DNA of 38,444 nucleotides from Aeromonadaceae bacterium (GTDB taxonomy: Bacteria > Pseudomonadota > Gammaproteobacteria > Enterobacterales > Aeromonadaceae), in NCBI GenBank assembly GCA_021209335.1, contig JAJOIN010000080.1:1-38444 (forward strand). Direction: 5' to 3'. Below are positions 19,072-35,538 of the stretch, in pieces. A program made the translations under genes and the position numbers. Within the stretch, counting starts at the first letter, position 1; each line of letters opens with the position of its first letter. The notes beneath the pieces were generated by a model that made no database searches, was not told the origin of the DNA, and worked only from the letters and a program-made list of their open reading frames with translations.

Positions 19072-19722
19072 TTAGCGTTGCCAGCGTAGCGTCTGCCAGC
19101 CTCGGGCTTGCGCCAGCCCGGCCAGCCGCTCTGCCGGGTTCACCACATGGGCGTGCTCCACCAGCTCCAGCAGGGGCAGATCGTTGATGGAATCGCTGTA
19201 GCCGTGGCTGCCCGACCGCTCCAGCGCCGCGCCCAGGTGTTGCCGCAAACGGGTGACCTTACCGGCTTGAAAGCTCAGGACGCCTTGGGTGCGTCCGGTA
19301 TAGCGGCCGTCGATACATTCCAGTTCGATGGCCAGCACCTCGCTGACGCCCAGATGCCGAGCGACCGGCCGGACTATGTGTTCACCGCTGGCAGAGATGA
19401 GGATCACCCTGTCCCCCTGGGCCTGATGGCGGCTCAGGCACGTCAGTGCCGCCGGGTAGAGACGGGGCAGGATGCGCCTCTTGATACACAGATCCACCTC
19501 GGCGGCCACCTCGGCCTGACTGCGGTCGGCCAAGGGGCTGAGGGTAAAGGCCATGTACTCCTCCATTGCCAGGGAGCCGGCATAGTAGCGGGCCATCAGG
19601 GCCTGCTCCTGGCGGGCCATGGCCAGATCCGCCCAGCCCAGGGCCACCATGTGCTCAAACCAGAGGCTGGCGGTATCGCCCTCTAACAGGGTGTCGTCCA
19701 AATCGAACAGCGCCAGTGCCAT
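19072..19722 (-). CDS. HAD-IB family phosphatase (SerB-like)
   Basis: A 216-aa cytoplasmic phosphatase. Motif I is DLDDTLLEGD, with nucleophile D7 and acid D9. Motif II is the Ser in ILISASGEH, and motif III/IV is K in AGKVTRL and GYSDSINDLPLLE. This is the phosphoserine-phosphatase-like IB subgroup, which acts on phosphomonoesters. The start at 19722 overlaps the stop of the ATPase gene (TGATG), so it is the last gene of the phosphorus-uptake operon. In context it probably removes phosphate from the compound released by the upstream hydrolase; the substrate is not known. Confidence 0.88.
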   Translation of the reverse strand: MALALFDLDDTLLEGDTASLWFEHMVALGWADLAMARQEQALMARYYAGSLAMEEYMAFTLSPLADRSQAEVAAEVDLCIKRRILPRLYPAALTCLSRHQAQGDRVILISASGEHIVRPVARHLGVSEVLAIELECIDGRYTGRTQGVLSFQAGKVTRLRQHLGAALERSGSHGYSDSINDLPLLELVEHAHVVNPAERLAGLAQARGWQTLRWQR

Positions 19723-20711
19723 CAGGCCACCTCCCGGATTTGATCGGTCTGAAACTGCAAGGTGACGGCCGTGCCTGCGGCCAGCAGTCCCTGCACTCCC
19801 TGGTTCAGGGTGTCCACGTCCAGGCGTTGATCCTGCCATTGCACCTGATAGCGCACCACATTACCCAACAGCTGATGACCCAGTATGCGGGCCGGGCCCT
19901 GGGGCTGCGGCTGCAGCCCGATGCATTCGGGGCGGATGGCCAGGCAGCCCTGGCCACTGTGTCCCAGCAGCCGCTGGGCCGCCTCCGGCTCCAGCAGGTT
20001 GTAGTGGCCGATGAAGTGGGCGGCAAAGCGGTTCACCGGGCGGGCGTAGATCTCCTCGGCGGTCCCGGTTTGCACTATCTGTCCGTCTTGCATCAGCACT
20101 ATGCGGTCGGAGAGCAGCAAGGCCTCCTCCTGATCATGGGTGACGAAGACGGTGGTCACCCCCAGGGCGTGCACCAGCGCGCGGATCTGGCTGCGCAGGT
20201 GACGACGGATCCGCGCATCCAATGCAGACAGGGGCTCATCCAGCAGCAGCAGGCGCGGCTTGACCGCCAGGGCACGGGCCAGGGCCACCCGCTGCTGCTG
20301 ACCACCGGACAATTCGCCTGGCATGGCATCGGCCTTGCCCGTCAGCTCCACCAGTTCGAGCATCTGGGCCACCCGCGCCCGGCGCTCCGGCTCGGGCAGG
20401 CCCTGCATCCTCAGACCGAAGCCCACGTTGTCAGCCACCGTCATATTGGGGAACAGGGCATAGTGTTGAAACACCATGCCGATCTGGCGTTGTTGCGGGG
20501 CCCGCTGGCTGATCTCTTCGCCGTCGAGCAGTATCTCCCCCCCATCCAGAGGGGTGAGCCCGGCCAGGATGCGCAGCAGTGTGCTCTTGCCACAGCCGCT
20601 GGGCCCCAAGAGGGTGATGAGCTCGCCTTGCTGGATGCTGAGGTTGAGGTTGTCGAACAGGGGGCGGTCGGGGAGCTGTTTGCACAGGCCTCGCAGGGTA
20701 ACAAAGCTCAT
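19722..20711 (-). CDS. ABC transporter ATPase, 2-aminoethylphosphonate/iron/spermidine type
   Basis: A 329-aa ATPase that energises the two permeases encoded before it. Walker A is GPSGCGKST (residues 36-44), the signature is [15 protein letters not shown], Walker B is LLLLDEPLSALD and the switch His is in VTHDQEEALLLSD. A C-terminal TOBE-like domain of ~100 residues includes AIRPECIGLQPQ. Length and domain order fit the CysA/PotA/FbpC and PhnT group. AAGGAG stands 7 bases before the ATG. The stop overlaps the HAD gene. Confidence 0.9.
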   Translation of the reverse strand: MSFVTLRGLCKQLPDRPLFDNLNLSIQQGELITLLGPSGCGKSTLLRILAGLTPLDGGEILLDGEEISQRAPQQRQIGMVFQHYALFPNMTVADNVGFGLRMQGLPEPERRARVAQMLELVELTGKADAMPGELSGGQQQRVALARALAVKPRLLLLDEPLSALDARIRRHLRSQIRALVHALGVTTVFVTHDQEEALLLSDRIVLMQDGQIVQTGTAEEIYARPVNRFAAHFIGHYNLLEPEAAQRLLGHSGQGCLAIRPECIGLQPQPQGPARILGHQLLGNVVRYQVQWQDQRLDVDTLNQGVQGLLAAGTAVTLQFQTDQIREVA

Positions 20712-20721
20712 GAGGGGCTCC

Positions 20722-21495
20722 TTAACGGTTGAAGCGGCTGGCCAGCCAGGTCAGCAGCAGTGTGATGAAGAAGTAGCTGATCACCAGGGCGCTGGTGTAG
20801 TGGCCGCTGGTGGCGCGCATGTTGTAGAGGTAGATCTGCAGGGTTTCAAACCGGGTGCCCACCAGCAGGTTGGCAAAGACAAATTCTCCCATCAGAAACG
20901 AAAAGCTCAAAAACAGCGCCGAAAACAGGCTCTTGCGCAATGCCGGCAAGATCACAAGCCAAAAGGCCTGCGGCGCCGAGGCGCCCAGCAACTGGGCGGC
21001 CGCCATCAGATCCTGTACGGCCAACCTGGATAGGCGGTTGGCCAGGGCACGGTAAAGCAGGGGCAACGCCAGGCTGAAATAGCAACCCAACAGGATCCAG
21101 GGGGTGCCCACCAGCGGCAGGGCGCCGCCGGCATACAGGCTCAGCAGCCCGACACTCGCCACCACAGGCGGCATGGCAAAGGGCAGCAGGATCAAGATCC
21201 CCATGGGTTTATCCAGGCGTGGATAGCGGTAGAAGATGACAAAGGCCGCCGGTACCACGACAAGGTAGGTCAGCAGCAGGCTGCCGGCGCACACGAGCAA
21301 GGAGCGCGCCAGGGCGGCCAGAAAGCGCGGCTCGGCCCACAGCTGCAGGTACCAGTTCAGCGAGAAGCCGTCCGGCAGTATGGTGGCGCCCCAGCGGCTG
21401 GACAGGGAATAGAGCAAGGTGGCGAAGATGGGCAGCAACAGCAGCCCCAGCAGGCCGCCCAGCACTGCCTTGGGCCAGTGGTTAGCGAGCGGCAT
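20722..21495 (-). CDS. ABC transporter permease (second subunit)
   Basis: A 257-aa inner-membrane protein with six predicted helices. The coupling-helix EAA-like loop is around ALANRLSRLAVQDLMAAAQLLGASAPQAFWLVILPALRKS. The family opening is LLLPIFATLLYSLSSRWG. It pairs with the permease at 21482-22369, whose end it overlaps by 14 bases, implying translational coupling. It corresponds by position to the PhnV-type subunit in 2-aminoethylphosphonate transporters; this correspondence is inference. Confidence 0.87.
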   Translation of the reverse strand: MPLANHWPKAVLGGLLGLLLLPIFATLLYSLSSRWGATILPDGFSLNWYLQLWAEPRFLAALARSLLVCAGSLLLTYLVVVPAAFVIFYRYPRLDKPMGILILLPFAMPPVVASVGLLSLYAGGALPLVGTPWILLGCYFSLALPLLYRALANRLSRLAVQDLMAAAQLLGASAPQAFWLVILPALRKSLFSALFLSFSFLMGEFVFANLLVGTRFETLQIYLYNMRATSGHYTSALVISYFFITLLLTWLASRFNR

Positions 21496-22369
21496 AGTGA
21501 AATCTCCCCATCAACAGTTGGTTGGCCCAGCCGACCAGCGCCAGTATGAGCAGCAGCAGCACGCACAGGGCGGCCGCCAGCTCAGGCTCGAGGAAGAGTT
21601 CACCGGAAACCAGGCTGGCGATGCGGATGGTCAGCAGGTTGATGTTGCCCAGGGTCAGGGCGTAGGCACTGGCATAGGCGCCCATGGCGTTGGCAAACAG
21701 CAACATGAAGGTGCCCAGCAAGGCTGGGGCCAGAATGGGCAGTGTGATGTGGCGCAAAATCTGCCAGGGGCGTGCCCCCAACAGGGCGGCGGCCTCCTGC
21801 CATTGGGGCTGCAGGTTGTCAAAGGCCGGGTAGAGCAGCAGCAAGGCCAAGGGCAGCTGAAAATAGATGTACAGCAGCAGCAGACCCTTCATGGAGTAGA
21901 GGTCAAACAGCTCTATGCCCCACCACTGGCGGGCCAGCAGTGTGATGGCGCCATTGGTGCCCAGTATGACGATAAAGGCAAACGCCAGGGGCACGCCGGC
22001 CATGTTGCTGCTCATGTTGGTGAAGGCGATGATGGCATCGCGCCAGCGGCTGGTCACCCGGCTGAGGGCGGCGGCGGCCACCCCGGCGATCAGCAAGCCC
22101 GCCAGGCTGGAGAGGCTGGCGAGCCACAGGCTCTTGCCAAACGCCTGCCGATAAAAAGGCGACGCCAGTATCGACTCAAAGCGCGCGAGGGTGAGCCCCT
22201 CCGGACTCCAGAGGGCGTGCCAAAGCACCCAGCCCAAGGGCGCCAGGCTAAAGAGGCCCAGCAGTAACAGCAGGGGAAGCAGCCACAGCAGCGCCAGGGG
22301 GCGGCGCTGTGGCCCGCCGGCTTGGCGGGCATCCCAGGTGCAGTGTCGATCCAGGAGCAGGCTGGTCAT
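21482..22369 (-). CDS. ABC transporter permease (first subunit)
   Basis: A 295-aa inner-membrane protein. The start at 22369 overlaps the stop of the hydrolase gene (ATGA); the longer in-frame extension runs into that gene and is rejected. N-terminal ~30 residues are cytoplasmic and Arg-rich (RQAGGPQRRP). Six or so helices follow. The EAA-type loop is QWQEAAALLGARPWQILRHITLPIL, which contacts the ATPase. It belongs to the same PotB/CysT/PhnU-like family as its partner. Confidence 0.87.
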   Translation of the reverse strand: MTSLLLDRHCTWDARQAGGPQRRPLALLWLLPLLLLLGLFSLAPLGWVLWHALWSPEGLTLARFESILASPFYRQAFGKSLWLASLSSLAGLLIAGVAAAALSRVTSRWRDAIIAFTNMSSNMAGVPLAFAFIVILGTNGAITLLARQWWGIELFDLYSMKGLLLLYIYFQLPLALLLLYPAFDNLQPQWQEAAALLGARPWQILRHITLPILAPALLGTFMLLFANAMGAYASAYALTLGNINLLTIRIASLVSGELFLEPELAAALCVLLLLILALVGWANQLLMGRFHYAAR

Positions 22370-23193
22370 ACGGGCCTCCAATCGGGGTTGAGCAGATCCG
22401 GACAACTGGGCAGGGCATGGGGCAGCGCCAACAGGCTGGCCAGGGTGCCACACAGTTCCACCTGGCGGGGCGGGCGTCTGGGGTTCAGGTTGAAGGCGTC
22501 GCCCACCAAGAACAGCGGCACCTCCCGCTCGCAGGCCAGGCTGCCGCCATGGGTGTGGTCGTCGTTCATGCCATGATCGCTCGTGATCAGGATCTGATAG
22601 CCGGCGGCGCGCCAGTCGGGCAAAAAGTCACTGAGCAGGATGTCGAAGCGCCGGGCGGCGTTGCGGTACTGAGGGCTGGAGAGGCCATGCCGGTGGCCGG
22701 CGTCGTCCACGTTCATCGGATGGATGAACAAGAGATCCGGCTGATGGCGACGCAACAGATCGTCGGCATCGATCAGCAGGTGATCATCGGGATAATCATC
22801 CTGGTGATAGAAGCGACCGTACTGGATGGGCAGACTCAGATCCTGGGTGAACCGGTCACGCCGGGCGTCGTAGGGGCTGCGGTTATACAGCTCGCTGACC
22901 CAATGGTAGGCCGCCGCCGCTGTGGTCAGCCCGGCCTGTTGCGCCAGGCTAAACAGGCTGGGGCCATGGGACAGGCGTGTGATGCCGTTGTGGCGGATGC
23001 CGCTTTGCACCGGGGTTTGCCCGGTGAGCAGCGTCTCATAGAGGGGACGGGAGAGGGAGGGCAACTCGCTCTGCAGCTTGTGCAGGCTGGCTTGCCCTGA
23101 CTCACACAAGGCCAACAGGTAGCCCAGGCTGTGCTGGGCTACCTCATAGGCCAGGCCGTCGATCAGCAGGTAGATGACCTTGGCGTTTGTCAT
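22366..23193 (-). CDS. cytoplasmic alkaline-phosphatase-superfamily hydrolase (NPP/PhnA-like fold)
   Basis: A 275-aa type I phosphodiesterase/nucleotide pyrophosphatase-fold enzyme. The metal-binding Asp is D12 in YLLIDGLAYE. The nucleophile position, usually Thr, appears to be S48 in PSLSRPLYETLLTG. Other metal ligands are in HPMNVDDAGHRHG and ITSDHGMNDDHTHGG. There is no signal peptide, so it works in the cytoplasm on the imported compound. The start at 23193, 8 bases after the binding-protein gene, opens the protein directly on the catalytic strand. The fold includes phosphodiesterases, phosphonoacetate hydrolase and phosphoglycerate mutases; the reaction here is unknown. Confidence 0.85.
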   Translation of the reverse strand: MTNAKVIYLLIDGLAYEVAQHSLGYLLALCESGQASLHKLQSELPSLSRPLYETLLTGQTPVQSGIRHNGITRLSHGPSLFSLAQQAGLTTAAAAYHWVSELYNRSPYDARRDRFTQDLSLPIQYGRFYHQDDYPDDHLLIDADDLLRRHQPDLLFIHPMNVDDAGHRHGLSSPQYRNAARRFDILLSDFLPDWRAAGYQILITSDHGMNDDHTHGGSLACEREVPLFLVGDAFNLNPRRPPRQVELCGTLASLLALPHALPSCPDLLNPDWRPV

Positions 23194-23201
23194 GGCGCGG
23201 A

Positions 23202-24245
23202 TTACGGCTGATGGATCATGACGTTTTCCTGCCACAGGCGGGGCAGGGCCTTGCCGGCTTCGCTCCAGGCATCAAAGTCGCTCACCGGTTTGGCGGCGGC
23301 ATACTGCTCCGGCGGCAGCATCTTGGCCTTGACGTCGTCCGGCAGCACCACATCGCTGCGGATGGGGCGGGCATAACCGCGGGCCAGGTTGATTTGACCG
23401 GCGTCGCTCAGGATATATTCCCGCGCCAGCTTGGCGGCGTTGGGGTGCTTGGCGTACTTGTTGATGATGGTGGTGTAGCCGGAGACCACGGAGCCATCGG
23501 AGGGGATCACCACCAGGAAGCGGCTGGGATCAATCTGGTCCCGGTAGTTCAGGGCATTGAAGTCCCACAGCACGGCCACCGCCACCTCACCCTTCTCCAG
23601 ATTGGCCAAGGAGGGATCAGTGAGAGAGAGGCGACCCTGCTTGGCCAGCTCGGCAAACAGCTCGAAGGCCGGCTGCAGGTTCTTCTCATTGCCGCCGCCG
23701 GCGATGGCGGCGGCCAGCACGCCGTTATTGGCCTGGGAGGCAACCCCCACGTTGCCCACCGTCACCTTGTATTGACCGGTGCGCAGATCCGCCCAGCTCT
23801 TGGGCGGGTTTGGCACCAGATCCTTGTTGATCATGAAGGCGATGGTGCCGGTATAGGCCAGCATCCAGTGACCCTCCTGATCCTTGGCCCAGGCCGGGAT
23901 GGCATCCCAGTGGGTGGGCTTGTAGGGCTGGGTCACCCCTTTTTGCACCGCCAGCGGGCCGAAGGCATGGCCGACGTCGCCGATGTCGGCGGTGGCATCA
24001 TGGGCTTCGGCGGCAAACTTGGCGATCTCTTCGGCGGAGCTCATGTCGGTATCCATGTGGGCCAGACCGAACTGGCTGTGCAGATCCTGCCAGGTCTCTT
24101 TCCAGTTGGCCCAGCTGTCGGGCATGCCGATGCTGTTGACCGTGCCTTCGGCCTGCGCGGCCTTGACCAAGTCGGCCGGAGCGGCCTGGCTGGCGAGGGG
24201 GAGGGCAAGGGTACCCAGGATGAGGCAAAGCGGCAGAGCTTTCAT
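23202..24245 (-). CDS. ABC transporter periplasmic substrate-binding protein
   Basis: A 347-aa periplasmic binding protein, first gene of the operon. The signal peptide MKALPLCLILGTLALPLASQAA is followed by a mature chain with PDSWANWKETWQDL and GDVGHAFGPLAVQ, then a hinge region LAYTGTIAFMINKDLVP. This is the group II fold used for iron, polyamine, thiamine and 2-aminoethylphosphonate (PhnS-like). The Pho box upstream makes a phosphorus compound the most likely ligand. AGAAGGAG lies upstream of the ATG and is overlapped by a probable repressor operator. Confidence 0.88.
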   Translation of the reverse strand: MKALPLCLILGTLALPLASQAAPADLVKAAQAEGTVNSIGMPDSWANWKETWQDLHSQFGLAHMDTDMSSAEEIAKFAAEAHDATADIGDVGHAFGPLAVQKGVTQPYKPTHWDAIPAWAKDQEGHWMLAYTGTIAFMINKDLVPNPPKSWADLRTGQYKVTVGNVGVASQANNGVLAAAIAGGGNEKNLQPAFELFAELAKQGRLSLTDPSLANLEKGEVAVAVLWDFNALNYRDQIDPSRFLVVIPSDGSVVSGYTTIINKYAKHPNAAKLAREYILSDAGQINLARGYARPIRSDVVLPDDVKAKMLPPEQYAAAKPVSDFDAWSEAGKALPRLWQENVMIHQP

Positions 24246-24258
24246 GGTGTGACTCCTT

Positions 24259-24272
24259 CTGGACTAGGTCAG
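24259..24272. promoter_or_regulatory. operator 1 for the UTRA-type regulator
   Basis: CTGGACTAGGTCAG is an imperfect dyad. It matches 9 of 12 positions of TGGTCTAGACCA, the DasR/NagR-class site of HutC-type GntR repressors. It lies between the Pho-type promoter and the binding-protein start and touches the ribosome site. The reverse complement plus flank is 18/20 identical to the region of operator 2. Confidence 0.6.
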
Positions 24273-24296
24273 GTTGGGTGATTGCTGTCGTTTTGT

Positions 24297-24331
24297 ATTA
24301 TTCCCAGCCAGCTGTGACACCTGGGTGACAG
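24297..24331 (-). promoter_or_regulatory. PhoB box and -10 of the phosphorus-uptake operon
   Basis: Read on the minus strand, 24331-24314 is CTGTCAC-CCAG-GTGTCAC, two 7-base PhoB half-sites with a 4-base linker as in the classical Pho box (consensus CTGTCAT repeated). Eleven bases further on is AATAAT (24302-24297), the expected -10 spacing for PhoB-activated promoters that lack a -35. The transcript would begin ~24290 and run through operator 1 into the binding-protein gene. The 317-base gap 24246-24562 otherwise holds the two operators and no convincing gene. Confidence 0.72.
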
Positions 24332-24400
24332 TTTCTTGAAGGTTAACCGTGTGATATGGCGCAAACAATCACCAGATGGCAGTTTGCAGTAAGATTCTTT

Positions 24401-24414
24401 CTGGGCTAGTCCAG
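24401..24414. promoter_or_regulatory. operator 2 for the UTRA-type regulator
   Basis: CTGGGCTAGTCCAG is a 14-base dyad, 10 of 12 matches to the DasR-class site. It lies ~150 bases before the regulator start and in opposite orientation to operator 1. The identical flank AAGGAG follows it, although no start codon is nearby, so this side looks like a duplicated promoter fragment. Confidence 0.6.
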
Positions 24415-24562
24415 AAGGAGGTTTTCACTGGGATTTGTCGTCGCCCTGGCCACTCATGACACCAAATCGCCACGTCGGCAAGCTATTGTCAGGGGGGATC
24501 GGGGAGCGTTTGACCCCAGATATGCTATCGTTGCCCGCCGTAACCATGTCAGAGGGGATGTC

Positions 24563-25321
24563 ATGAACCAGTGGATGAGTCCAGACGAGCGCCAGCCGAC
24601 CCAGGTGGCCCAGATCCGCCAATCCTTGCAAGAGCAGATCCGCGCCGGCTTGCTGCGGCCGGGCATGCGCCTGCCGTCGGAGCGGGCGCTGAGCGAGCGT
24701 TTTGCCACCACCCGCATCACCTTAAAAGAGGCCCTGGCGGTGCTGGAGACGGAGGGGCAGATCTACCGGGAGGAGCGGCGCGGCTGGTTTGTGGCCCCCC
24801 CCCGCCTCATCTACGATCCCCGCACCAAGAGCCACTTTCAGGCCATGGTGGAGGGCCAGGGGCGGGTGGCCACCACCCGGGTGTTGCAGGCCGGCCCCGT
24901 GGTGGCCAAGGCCGAACTGTGCCAGCGCATGGGCTTGGCTCCCTTGAGCCCCTTACTCAAGATCTGCCGGGTGCGCTCGCTGGATGGGCGGGATGTGTTG
25001 TACGTGGAGCACTACCTGCTGCCGGAACGCTTCCCCGGTCTGCTGGAGCAGGATCTCACCTGCTCCCTGACCCGCCTGTATGCCGAGCGCTATGGCATCG
25101 GCTACGGCCAGTCTACCTTTGATATTCTGCCTACCGCCGCCCAAGGCGCTGTGGCGCGGGCCCTGGGTCTGCCACCGGGGGCGCCGCTGTTGCAGATCTG
25201 CCGGTTGAACCTGGACGGGCAAGGGCGGCTGATCGACTGCGACATGGAGTATTGGCGGCAGGATGCGGTGGTCATCCGCATTCAAAGCGATCCCTTGCCG
25301 CCGGACAGCGCTTTATCCTGA
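24563..25321 (+). CDS. GntR family regulator with UTRA domain (HutC subfamily)
   Basis: A 252-aa repressor. The N-terminal winged helix spans residues ~15-75, with the GntR signature LRPGMRLPSERALSERFATTRITLKEAL and GWFV. The C-terminal UTRA effector domain spans ~95-245 (RVLQAGPVVAK, then VEHYLLPERFPGLL, then CDMEYWRQDAVVIRIQ). It is divergent from the phosphorus-uptake operon and is the obvious local regulator, like PhnR of 2-aminoethylphosphonate systems. The effector is probably the imported compound or its phosphorylated product, which is inference. The GAGGGGATGTC before the ATG gives the ribosome site. Confidence 0.88.
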   Translation: MNQWMSPDERQPTQVAQIRQSLQEQIRAGLLRPGMRLPSERALSERFATTRITLKEALAVLETEGQIYREERRGWFVAPPRLIYDPRTKSHFQAMVEGQGRVATTRVLQAGPVVAKAELCQRMGLAPLSPLLKICRVRSLDGRDVLYVEHYLLPERFPGLLEQDLTCSLTRLYAERYGIGYGQSTFDILPTAAQGAVARALGLPPGAPLLQICRLNLDGQGRLIDCDMEYWRQDAVVIRIQSDPLPPDSALS

Positions 25322-35425: not shown

Positions 35426-35538
35426 GGCAGTTGGTAAAATTGACGAAGTGATTGGTCAATTTAATCACTTTCAGCCAGATTTGGCCAACCCGGTTTTTAA
35501 AAATCATTTAATATCAAAGTGTTAATCTTTTTTCTGAG

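What the first reader, a model, noticed from the sequence alone, without database searches (positions are those of the whole stretch)
24297..24331. Pho box with correctly spaced -10 in the divergent gap
CTGTCAC-CCAG-GTGTCAC on the minus strand with AATAAT 11 bases downstream has the exact geometry of a PhoB-activated promoter. It ties the operon to phosphate starvation, which the protein families alone do not prove.
Basis: seen in the sequence. Interest (0 to 1): 0.6.

Follow-up and report, generated by a model that had tools for sequence, protein, structure and literature searches.

The report
Phosphate-starvation switch for organophosphorus uptake genes
A real binding site for the phosphate-starvation regulator PhoB sits in front of a set of genes for importing and breaking down an organic phosphorus compound; the same switch recurs in front of the same genes in many related bacteria, so the control is ordinary in kind, but it conflicts with a published statement that what looks like this transporter is always on.

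Summary
Confirmed. CTGTCAC-CCAG-GTGTCAC lies at 24331..24314 (minus), 11 bp before AATAAT (24302..24297). With a matrix from 59 E. coli PhoB ChIP-seq sites it is the best site in the window (16.9 bits; E. coli median 18.0). In random 38-kb sequence that score alone is only mildly unusual (3 of 20). Position and conservation decide it. All 29 Aeromonadaceae relatives keep the divergent substrate-binding-protein/PhnR pair, nearly all with matrix-supported Pho boxes. Over 32 representatives from Pseudomonas, Vibrio, Enterobacterales and others, the 200 bp upstream of the binding-protein gene score 15.2 (median) versus -0.06 for 375 control upstream regions; the -10 lies exactly 10 bp after the box in 18 of 28, 0 of 16 controls. 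Most relatives carry a second Pho box facing phnR; in the window it is weak at best. A GntR/PhnR-type operator, CTGRYCTAGWCCAR, overlaps the leader; its only two exact genomic matches are in this gap. Best reading: PhoB~P activates, PhnR represses until a phosphonate or phosphodiester arrives. The operon looks orthologous to PA3249-PA3255 and probably P. putida aepSTU, called constitutive in print. Kind of control known; the conserved layout and the conflict are the news. No expression was measured.

The parts
24314..24331 (-). Pho box CTGTCAC-CCAG-GTGTCAC directed at the binding-protein operon
   Evidence: exact match; top PWM site of the window, 16.9 bits; above all 375 control upstream regions; conserved in relatives
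24325..24342 (-). overlapping upstream Pho-box register CCTTCAA-GAAA-CTGTCAC (third half-site, 11 bp further upstream)
   Evidence: third best PWM score in the window, 14.85 bits, same strand, 11-bp register
24297..24302 (-). -10 hexamer AATAAT, 11 bp after the box
   Evidence: the same hexamer lies 10 bp after the Pho box of phoB in this genome; no sigma-70 consensus promoter found in 24200-24600
24259..24272 (.). operator 1 (CTGACCTAGTCCAG on the minus strand), in the leader next to the Shine-Dalgarno AAGGAG; inferred PhnR site
   Evidence: exact match, one of two in the 2.18-Mb genome; the pattern lies within 200 bp upstream of the binding-protein gene in 69 of 80 loci
24401..24414 (.). operator 2 (CTGGGCTAGTCCAG, within the 18-bp palindrome 24399-24416); inferred PhnR site
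   Evidence: corresponds to the phnR-side operator of relatives, but lies 148 bp from phnR here, farther than in relatives
24456..24473 (+). weak candidate Pho box ATGACAC-CAAA-TCGCCAC facing phnR, 10 bp before TATTGT (24484-24489)
   Evidence: best plus-strand site of the gap, 11.0 bits, 6 of 100 shuffles equal it; inconclusive
23202..24245 (-). ABC substrate-binding protein (SBP_bac_6; distant PhnS/PRK15046 similarity)
   Evidence: PDB relative 5t1p
22366..23193 (-). alkaline-phosphatase-superfamily phosphodiesterase of NPP type; N-terminus shows no signal peptide by eye, so probably cytoplasmic
   Evidence: PF01663; conserved D17, S53, D169, H172, D211, H212, H220; model pLDDT 87, best fold matches NPPs, phosphonoacetate hydrolase lower
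21482..22453 (-). ABC permease, PhnU-like (the true start is probably inside this ORF)
   Evidence: conserved order
20722..21495 (-). ABC permease, PhnV-like
   Evidence: conserved order
19722..20711 (-). ABC ATPase, PhnT2-like
   Evidence: conserved order
19072..19839 (-). HAD-IB phosphatase (true start probably near 19725)
   Evidence: TIGR01490 above cut-off; conserved order
24563..25321 (+). PhnR-like GntR/UTRA regulator, divergent
   Evidence: TIGR03337 262.8 bits, cut-off 296.75; UTRA + GntR domains; roughly 45-60% identical to the divergent regulator in relatives

Best explanation
The feature is a PhoB-activated promoter (the Pho box replaces the -35) that drives a six-gene operon: substrate-binding protein, NPP-type phosphodiesterase, two permeases, ATPase, HAD phosphatase. 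Phosphate starvation makes PhoB~P, which occupies two or three 11-bp half-sites and recruits RNA polymerase to AATAAT. The divergent GntR/UTRA regulator (PhnR type) binds CTGRYCTAGWCCAR operators, one of them in the leader just upstream of the Shine-Dalgarno, and most likely represses until an imported phosphonate or phosphodiester (2-aminoethylphosphonate or a related head-group compound) binds it. Together this is an AND gate: low phosphate and substrate present. In most relatives PhoB also drives phnR through a second box. Shown here: sequence, score, position, conservation, operator specificity. Inferred: PhoB binding in this organism, that PhnR binds these operators and represses, the ligand, the transcription start.
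For: PWM built only from E. coli ChIP-seq sites: window rank 1, rank 11 of 857,174 positions in 429 kb of the same genome, where the top four lie upstream of phoB, pstS, a Pst-type permease and ppk. Own genome encodes PhoB above the curated cut-off. 29 Aeromonadaceae relatives: mean best scores 15.3 on each strand against shuffle means of 2.6 and 3.4. 32 representatives: median 15.2 against -0.06 in 375 controls; -10 exactly 10 bp after the box in 18 of 28 against 0 of 16 controls, binomial p 2e-10. P. aeruginosa locus: both boxes exactly 10 bp before TAGATT/TAGCAT and both operators. Operator: two exact genomic sites, both here; 69 of 80 loci. Published: the P. aeruginosa regulator PA3249 binds DNA as a dimer with its own HT-SELEX motif, by EMSA (PMC8041468); in P. 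putida the GntR regulator PPUBIRD1_3890 and ATPase PPUBIRD1_3895 were found under phosphate depletion in wild type and not detected in the phoBR mutant (PMC5082522).
Against: Spacing is 11 bp, not the 10 bp that dominates in relatives. In random windows the score alone is only mildly unusual. No expression or binding data for this organism, which is a 66%-complete MAG. The P. putida binding protein PPUBIRD1_3891 was listed as not affected by PhoBR in the cell proteome and as constitutive later (PMC5082522, PMC8316502), although its exoproteome level fell in the phoBR mutant. About a quarter of sampled loci (10 of 44) have no significant box towards the binding-protein gene.
Confidence: 0.88

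Rival explanations
1. The box is a chance match in GC-rich sequence, and the operon is controlled only by PhnR.
For: Three of 20 random windows hold an equally good site somewhere; spacing is one base off the family norm.
Against: Best site of the window falls at the one position where relatives have it; none of 375 control upstream regions scores as high; no sigma-70 consensus promoter is available instead.
Confidence: 0.05
2. The site binds another OmpR/PhoB-family response regulator with a TGTCA-type direct repeat, not PhoB itself.
For: The genome encodes many such regulators, and half-sites of this family can resemble each other (general knowledge).
Against: The same matrix picks phoB, pstS and ppk as top sites in this genome; gene content is phosphorus acquisition; P. 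putida proteins of what is very probably the same operon depend on phoBR (PMC5082522).
Confidence: 0.05
3. PhoB binds, but mainly as a modest modulator of a nearly constitutive operon: AepSTU-type housekeeping uptake.
For: PMC8316502 and PMC9311074 describe AepSTU of P. putida as constitutively synthesised.
Against: PMC5082522 reports the regulator and ATPase of the same locus-tag run as not detected in the phoBR mutant and PhnD3/AepS up 2.69 log2 under depletion. The conserved boxes look like primary promoters, since no alternative -35 is seen in the window.
Confidence: 0.15

Closest known systems
PhoB-activated promoters of the E. coli Pho regulon (pstS, phoA, phoB, ugpB, phnC)
   Same: 11-bp direct repeats of CTGTCAY, box in place of the -35, -10 just downstream, extra half-sites in register
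   Different: 11 instead of 10 bp to the -10; GC-rich linker; a GntR/UTRA operator is added in the leader
AepSTU (PhnD3) of Pseudomonas putida BIRD-1, auxiliary 2-aminoethylphosphonate transporter (PMC8316502, PMC5082522)
   Same: regulator (PPUBIRD1_3890), pfam13343 binding protein (3891) and ABC ATPase (3895) at locus-tag spacing that fits regulator-SBP-PDE-perm-perm-ATPase
   Different: described as constitutive; the phosphodiesterase and HAD genes are not discussed in the passages read; orthology inferred from order and tags, sequence not obtained
PA3249-PA3255 of Pseudomonas aeruginosa (PA numbers inferred from the neighbouring minCDE)
   Same: same genes, order, twin Pho boxes and operators; PA3250 seen in the phosphate-starvation exoproteome (PMC4899797)
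   Different: exact 10-bp spacing at both promoters; phnR-facing box intact
PhnSTUV with PhnR of Salmonella
   Same: PhnS/T/U/V-like transporter with a PhnR-type GntR regulator; PhoBR-controlled per PMC9311074
   Different: all transporter subunits score far below the PhnSTUV equivalog cut-offs; no phnWX seen in the operon; extra phosphodiesterase and HAD phosphatase
ugpBAEC-ugpQ of E. coli (own knowledge)
   Same: Pho-controlled importer encoded with a cytoplasmic phosphodiesterase
   Different: the enzyme here is an NPP/alkaline-phosphatase fold, not a GDPD; a HAD phosphatase and a dedicated regulator are added

Membership tests
PhoB-activated promoter (Pho box promoter) | two or more 11-bp direct-repeat half-sites matching CTGTCAY | tested here: met
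   16.9 bits plus an in-register third half-site
PhoB-activated promoter (Pho box promoter) | -10 element about 10 bp after the box | tested here: met
   AATAAT after 11 bp; the family norm is exactly 10, so met with one base of deviation
PhoB-activated promoter (Pho box promoter) | no good -35; activator-dependent | tested here: met
   no sigma-70 consensus promoter in 24200-24600
PhoB-activated promoter (Pho box promoter) | genome encodes PhoB | tested here: met
   TIGR02154 369 bits, cut-off 296.2
PhoB-activated promoter (Pho box promoter) | PhoB~P binding and phosphate-dependent transcription | not testable with these tools
   needs footprinting, RACE and a reporter
PhnR, phosphonate utilization regulator (TIGR03337) | score above the curated cut-off | tested here: not met
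   262.8 bits against 296.75; best family hit, but called PhnR-like only
PhnSTUV 2-AEP transporter | subunits above equivalog cut-offs | tested here: not met
   PhnS 42 of 395 bits, PhnU 68 of 283, PhnV 83 of 359, PhnT 277 of 499
AepSTU 2-AEP transporter | orthology of the binding protein to PPUBIRD1_3891 | tested here: inconclusive
NPP / alkaline phosphatase superfamily (PDE gene) | PF01663 match, metal-site Asp/His and nucleophile conserved | tested here: met

The most novel reading that the evidence does not exclude
AepSTU-type operons across Gammaproteobacteria form a conserved two-input module (twin divergent PhoB promoters plus PhnR operators) for importing and hydrolysing a phosphodiester or phosphonate ester inside the cell, an analogue of ugp with an NPP-fold enzyme. 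On this reading the published 'constitutive 2-AEP transporter' label describes a side activity of a phosphate-controlled system whose true substrate is not yet known.
Probability: 0.35. Interest if true: 0.6.

Novelty: new member of a known kind. Interest (0 to 1): 0.42.

Why it matters
It places a widespread, little-studied organophosphorus importer (at least 536 relatives of its binding protein in genome contigs) under direct PhoB control, contrary to the published label 'constitutive' for the likely P. putida version. It also gives a concrete operator sequence for its GntR/UTRA regulator, so ligand and substrate can be tested with one reporter. The control mechanism itself is textbook.

Tried and rejected
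1) Judging the box by score alone: rejected, since 3 of 20 random windows reach it. 2) Inverted-repeat reading of the same 20 bp (CTGTGACACCTGGGTGACAG): arms match at 7 of 10 by eye, weaker than the direct repeat, and the direct repeat is what relatives keep. 3) A plus-strand Pho box for phnR in the window: only a weak candidate, kept as inconclusive. 4) A longer phnR reading frame starting after operator 2: rejected, because orthologue N-termini fit the ATG at 24563. 5) A class-wide protein search at E 1e-60 found only the window's own genome; the degenerate-pattern scan found 536 relatives instead. 6) Morganella and Providencia loci lack a divergent PhnR and sit next to nudC-hemE-nfi instead but still carry a Pho box. 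8) Searches for KT2440 locus tags gave one unrelated proteome value. 9) Coordinate errors and a wrong handle gave nothing; one search was a report with a format error.

Full report
Setting. The finding lies in the 317-bp gap between a leftward six-gene operon and a rightward regulator gene.

Observation. The minus strand reads CTGTCAC-CCAG-GTGTCAC at 24331..24314 with no mismatch, then 11 bases, then AATAAT at 24302..24297. The degenerate consensus occurs once in the window and is expected 0.04 times. I built a PWM from the 59 E. coli PhoB ChIP-seq sites printed in PMC10294691, which contain nothing from this lineage. The site is the best of the window at 16.9 bits; the E. coli sites have a median of 18.0, phnC 17.1, ugpB 18.0. 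The third best is the same strand shifted by one 11-bp register. Score alone would leave doubt: 3 of 20 simulated windows contain an equal site somewhere.

Positive controls in the same genome. In 429 kb of the MAG, partly chosen for box-like hits, the four best sites lie upstream of phoB, pstS, a Pst-type permease gene and ppk; the window site ranks 11 of 857,174 positions. These gene names rest on sequence, with PhoB above its curated cut-off and the ppk N-terminal domain found; PstS and the permease were named by eye from their translations. The phoB box is followed, after 10 bp, by the same -10 hexamer AATAAT.

Comparative evidence. All 29 Aeromonadaceae relatives have the same divergent pair. 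Their intergenic regions carry Pho boxes on both strands: mean best scores 15.3 and 15.3 against shuffle means of 2.6 and 3.4; 28 of 29 (towards the binding protein) and 27 of 29 (towards phnR) reach 5% or better. Aligned on the operator, the minus-strand box is followed by exactly 10 bp and TAGCAT or TAACAT in most. The P. aeruginosa locus shows the same twin layout with TAGATT and TAGCAT. A wider scan found 536 relatives of the binding protein; 80 loci were kept, and the order SBP-PDE-PermA-PermB-ATPase-HAD with divergent PhnR is conserved in most. In 44 named loci the SBP-directed box is significant in 34, and the phnR-directed box in 22 of the 32 with PhnR; Enterobacterales lack the latter. 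Against 375 upstream regions of other genes in the same loci, the SBP upstream regions have a median score of 15.2 against -0.06; 24 of 32 exceed 12 bits against 1.1% of controls; the -10 lies at exactly 10 bp in 18 of 28 against 0 of 16. The window's 16.8 bits exceed every control. These loci are related, so the counts are not independent events, but the spacing test does not depend on the matrix.

Second regulator. CTGGNCTAGNYCAG matches exactly twice in the whole MAG, at 24259-24272 and 24401-24414, both in this gap. The first lies in the leader next to the Shine-Dalgarno; the pattern CTGRYCTAGWCCAR is found within 200 bp upstream of the binding-protein gene in 69 of 80 loci. The natural reader is the divergent GntR/UTRA protein, PhnR-like but below the TIGR03337 cut-off. 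The P. aeruginosa regulator PA3249 binds DNA with half-sites in EMSA (PMC8041468); its motif letters are not in the text I could read, so identity of the motif is not tested.

Function. The operon encodes an SBP_bac_6 binding protein, an alkaline-phosphatase-superfamily phosphodiesterase without a visible signal peptide and with the expected metal-site and nucleophile residues conserved, two permeases, an ATPase and a HAD-IB phosphatase. The modelled phosphodiesterase (pLDDT 87) matches NPP enzymes best, with phosphonoacetate hydrolase further down. This suggests import of a phosphodiester or phosphonate followed by hydrolysis in the cytoplasm (inference). Transporter subunits score far below PhnSTUV cut-offs.

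Literature. In P. putida BIRD-1 the locus tags 3890 (GntR), 3891 (pfam13343 binding protein PhnD3 = AepS) and 3895 (ATPase) fit this operon. PMC5082522 reports 3890 and 3895 as induced by phosphate depletion and not detected in the phoBR mutant, while 3891 stayed induced in the cell proteome but fell in the exoproteome. PMC8316502 and PMC9311074 call AepSTU constitutive and an auxiliary 2-AEP transporter. The conserved Pho boxes argue that the operon is PhoB-controlled; the orthology with BIRD-1 is inferred from order, not sequence. [quoted passage not shown] aeruginosa (PMC4899797); the PA numbers are my inference from the minCDE neighbourhood.

Verdict. The mechanism is a known kind. What stays open is the substrate, the ligand and the size of the phosphate response.

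Noticed in passing
24401-24414 and 24456-24489: In the window the phnR-side operator lies 148 bp from phnR, and the only Pho-like site facing phnR (weak) is downstream of it; in relatives the order is box, -10, operator, phnR. The layout seems rearranged or decayed in this lineage.
   Followed up: partly
24395-24420: Operator 2 with its flanks is also scored as a terminator-like hairpin (11 pairs) followed by GTTTT on the plus strand.
   Followed up: no
L145, L138, L157, L161, L162, L167: Morganella and Providencia carry the transporter operon without a divergent PhnR; in the two checked (L145, L138) it lies next to nudC-hemE-nfi. The Pho box is kept in the loci scanned (L138, L145, L157, L162, L167).
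   Followed up: partly
L074:7695 and 7830 (G000 C108): A divergent gap between a long Pst-type permease gene and ppk has strong Pho boxes on both strands, another twin-box promoter pair in the same genome.
   Followed up: partly
L072:9361 and L077:9726 (G000 C32, C96): Strong Pho-box matches lie just upstream of two genes that look like a chemotaxis receptor and an EAL-domain protein by eye, possible further PhoB targets.
   Followed up: no
L071:9487-9525 (G000 C36): Three in-register Pho half-sites stand upstream of an exported protein with an ARHGSR motif (histidine-phosphatase-like by eye).
   Followed up: no
35496-35513: AT-rich stretch TTTAAAAATCATTTAATA scores as high as the Pho box in the E. 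coli matrix; probably a composition effect.
   Followed up: no
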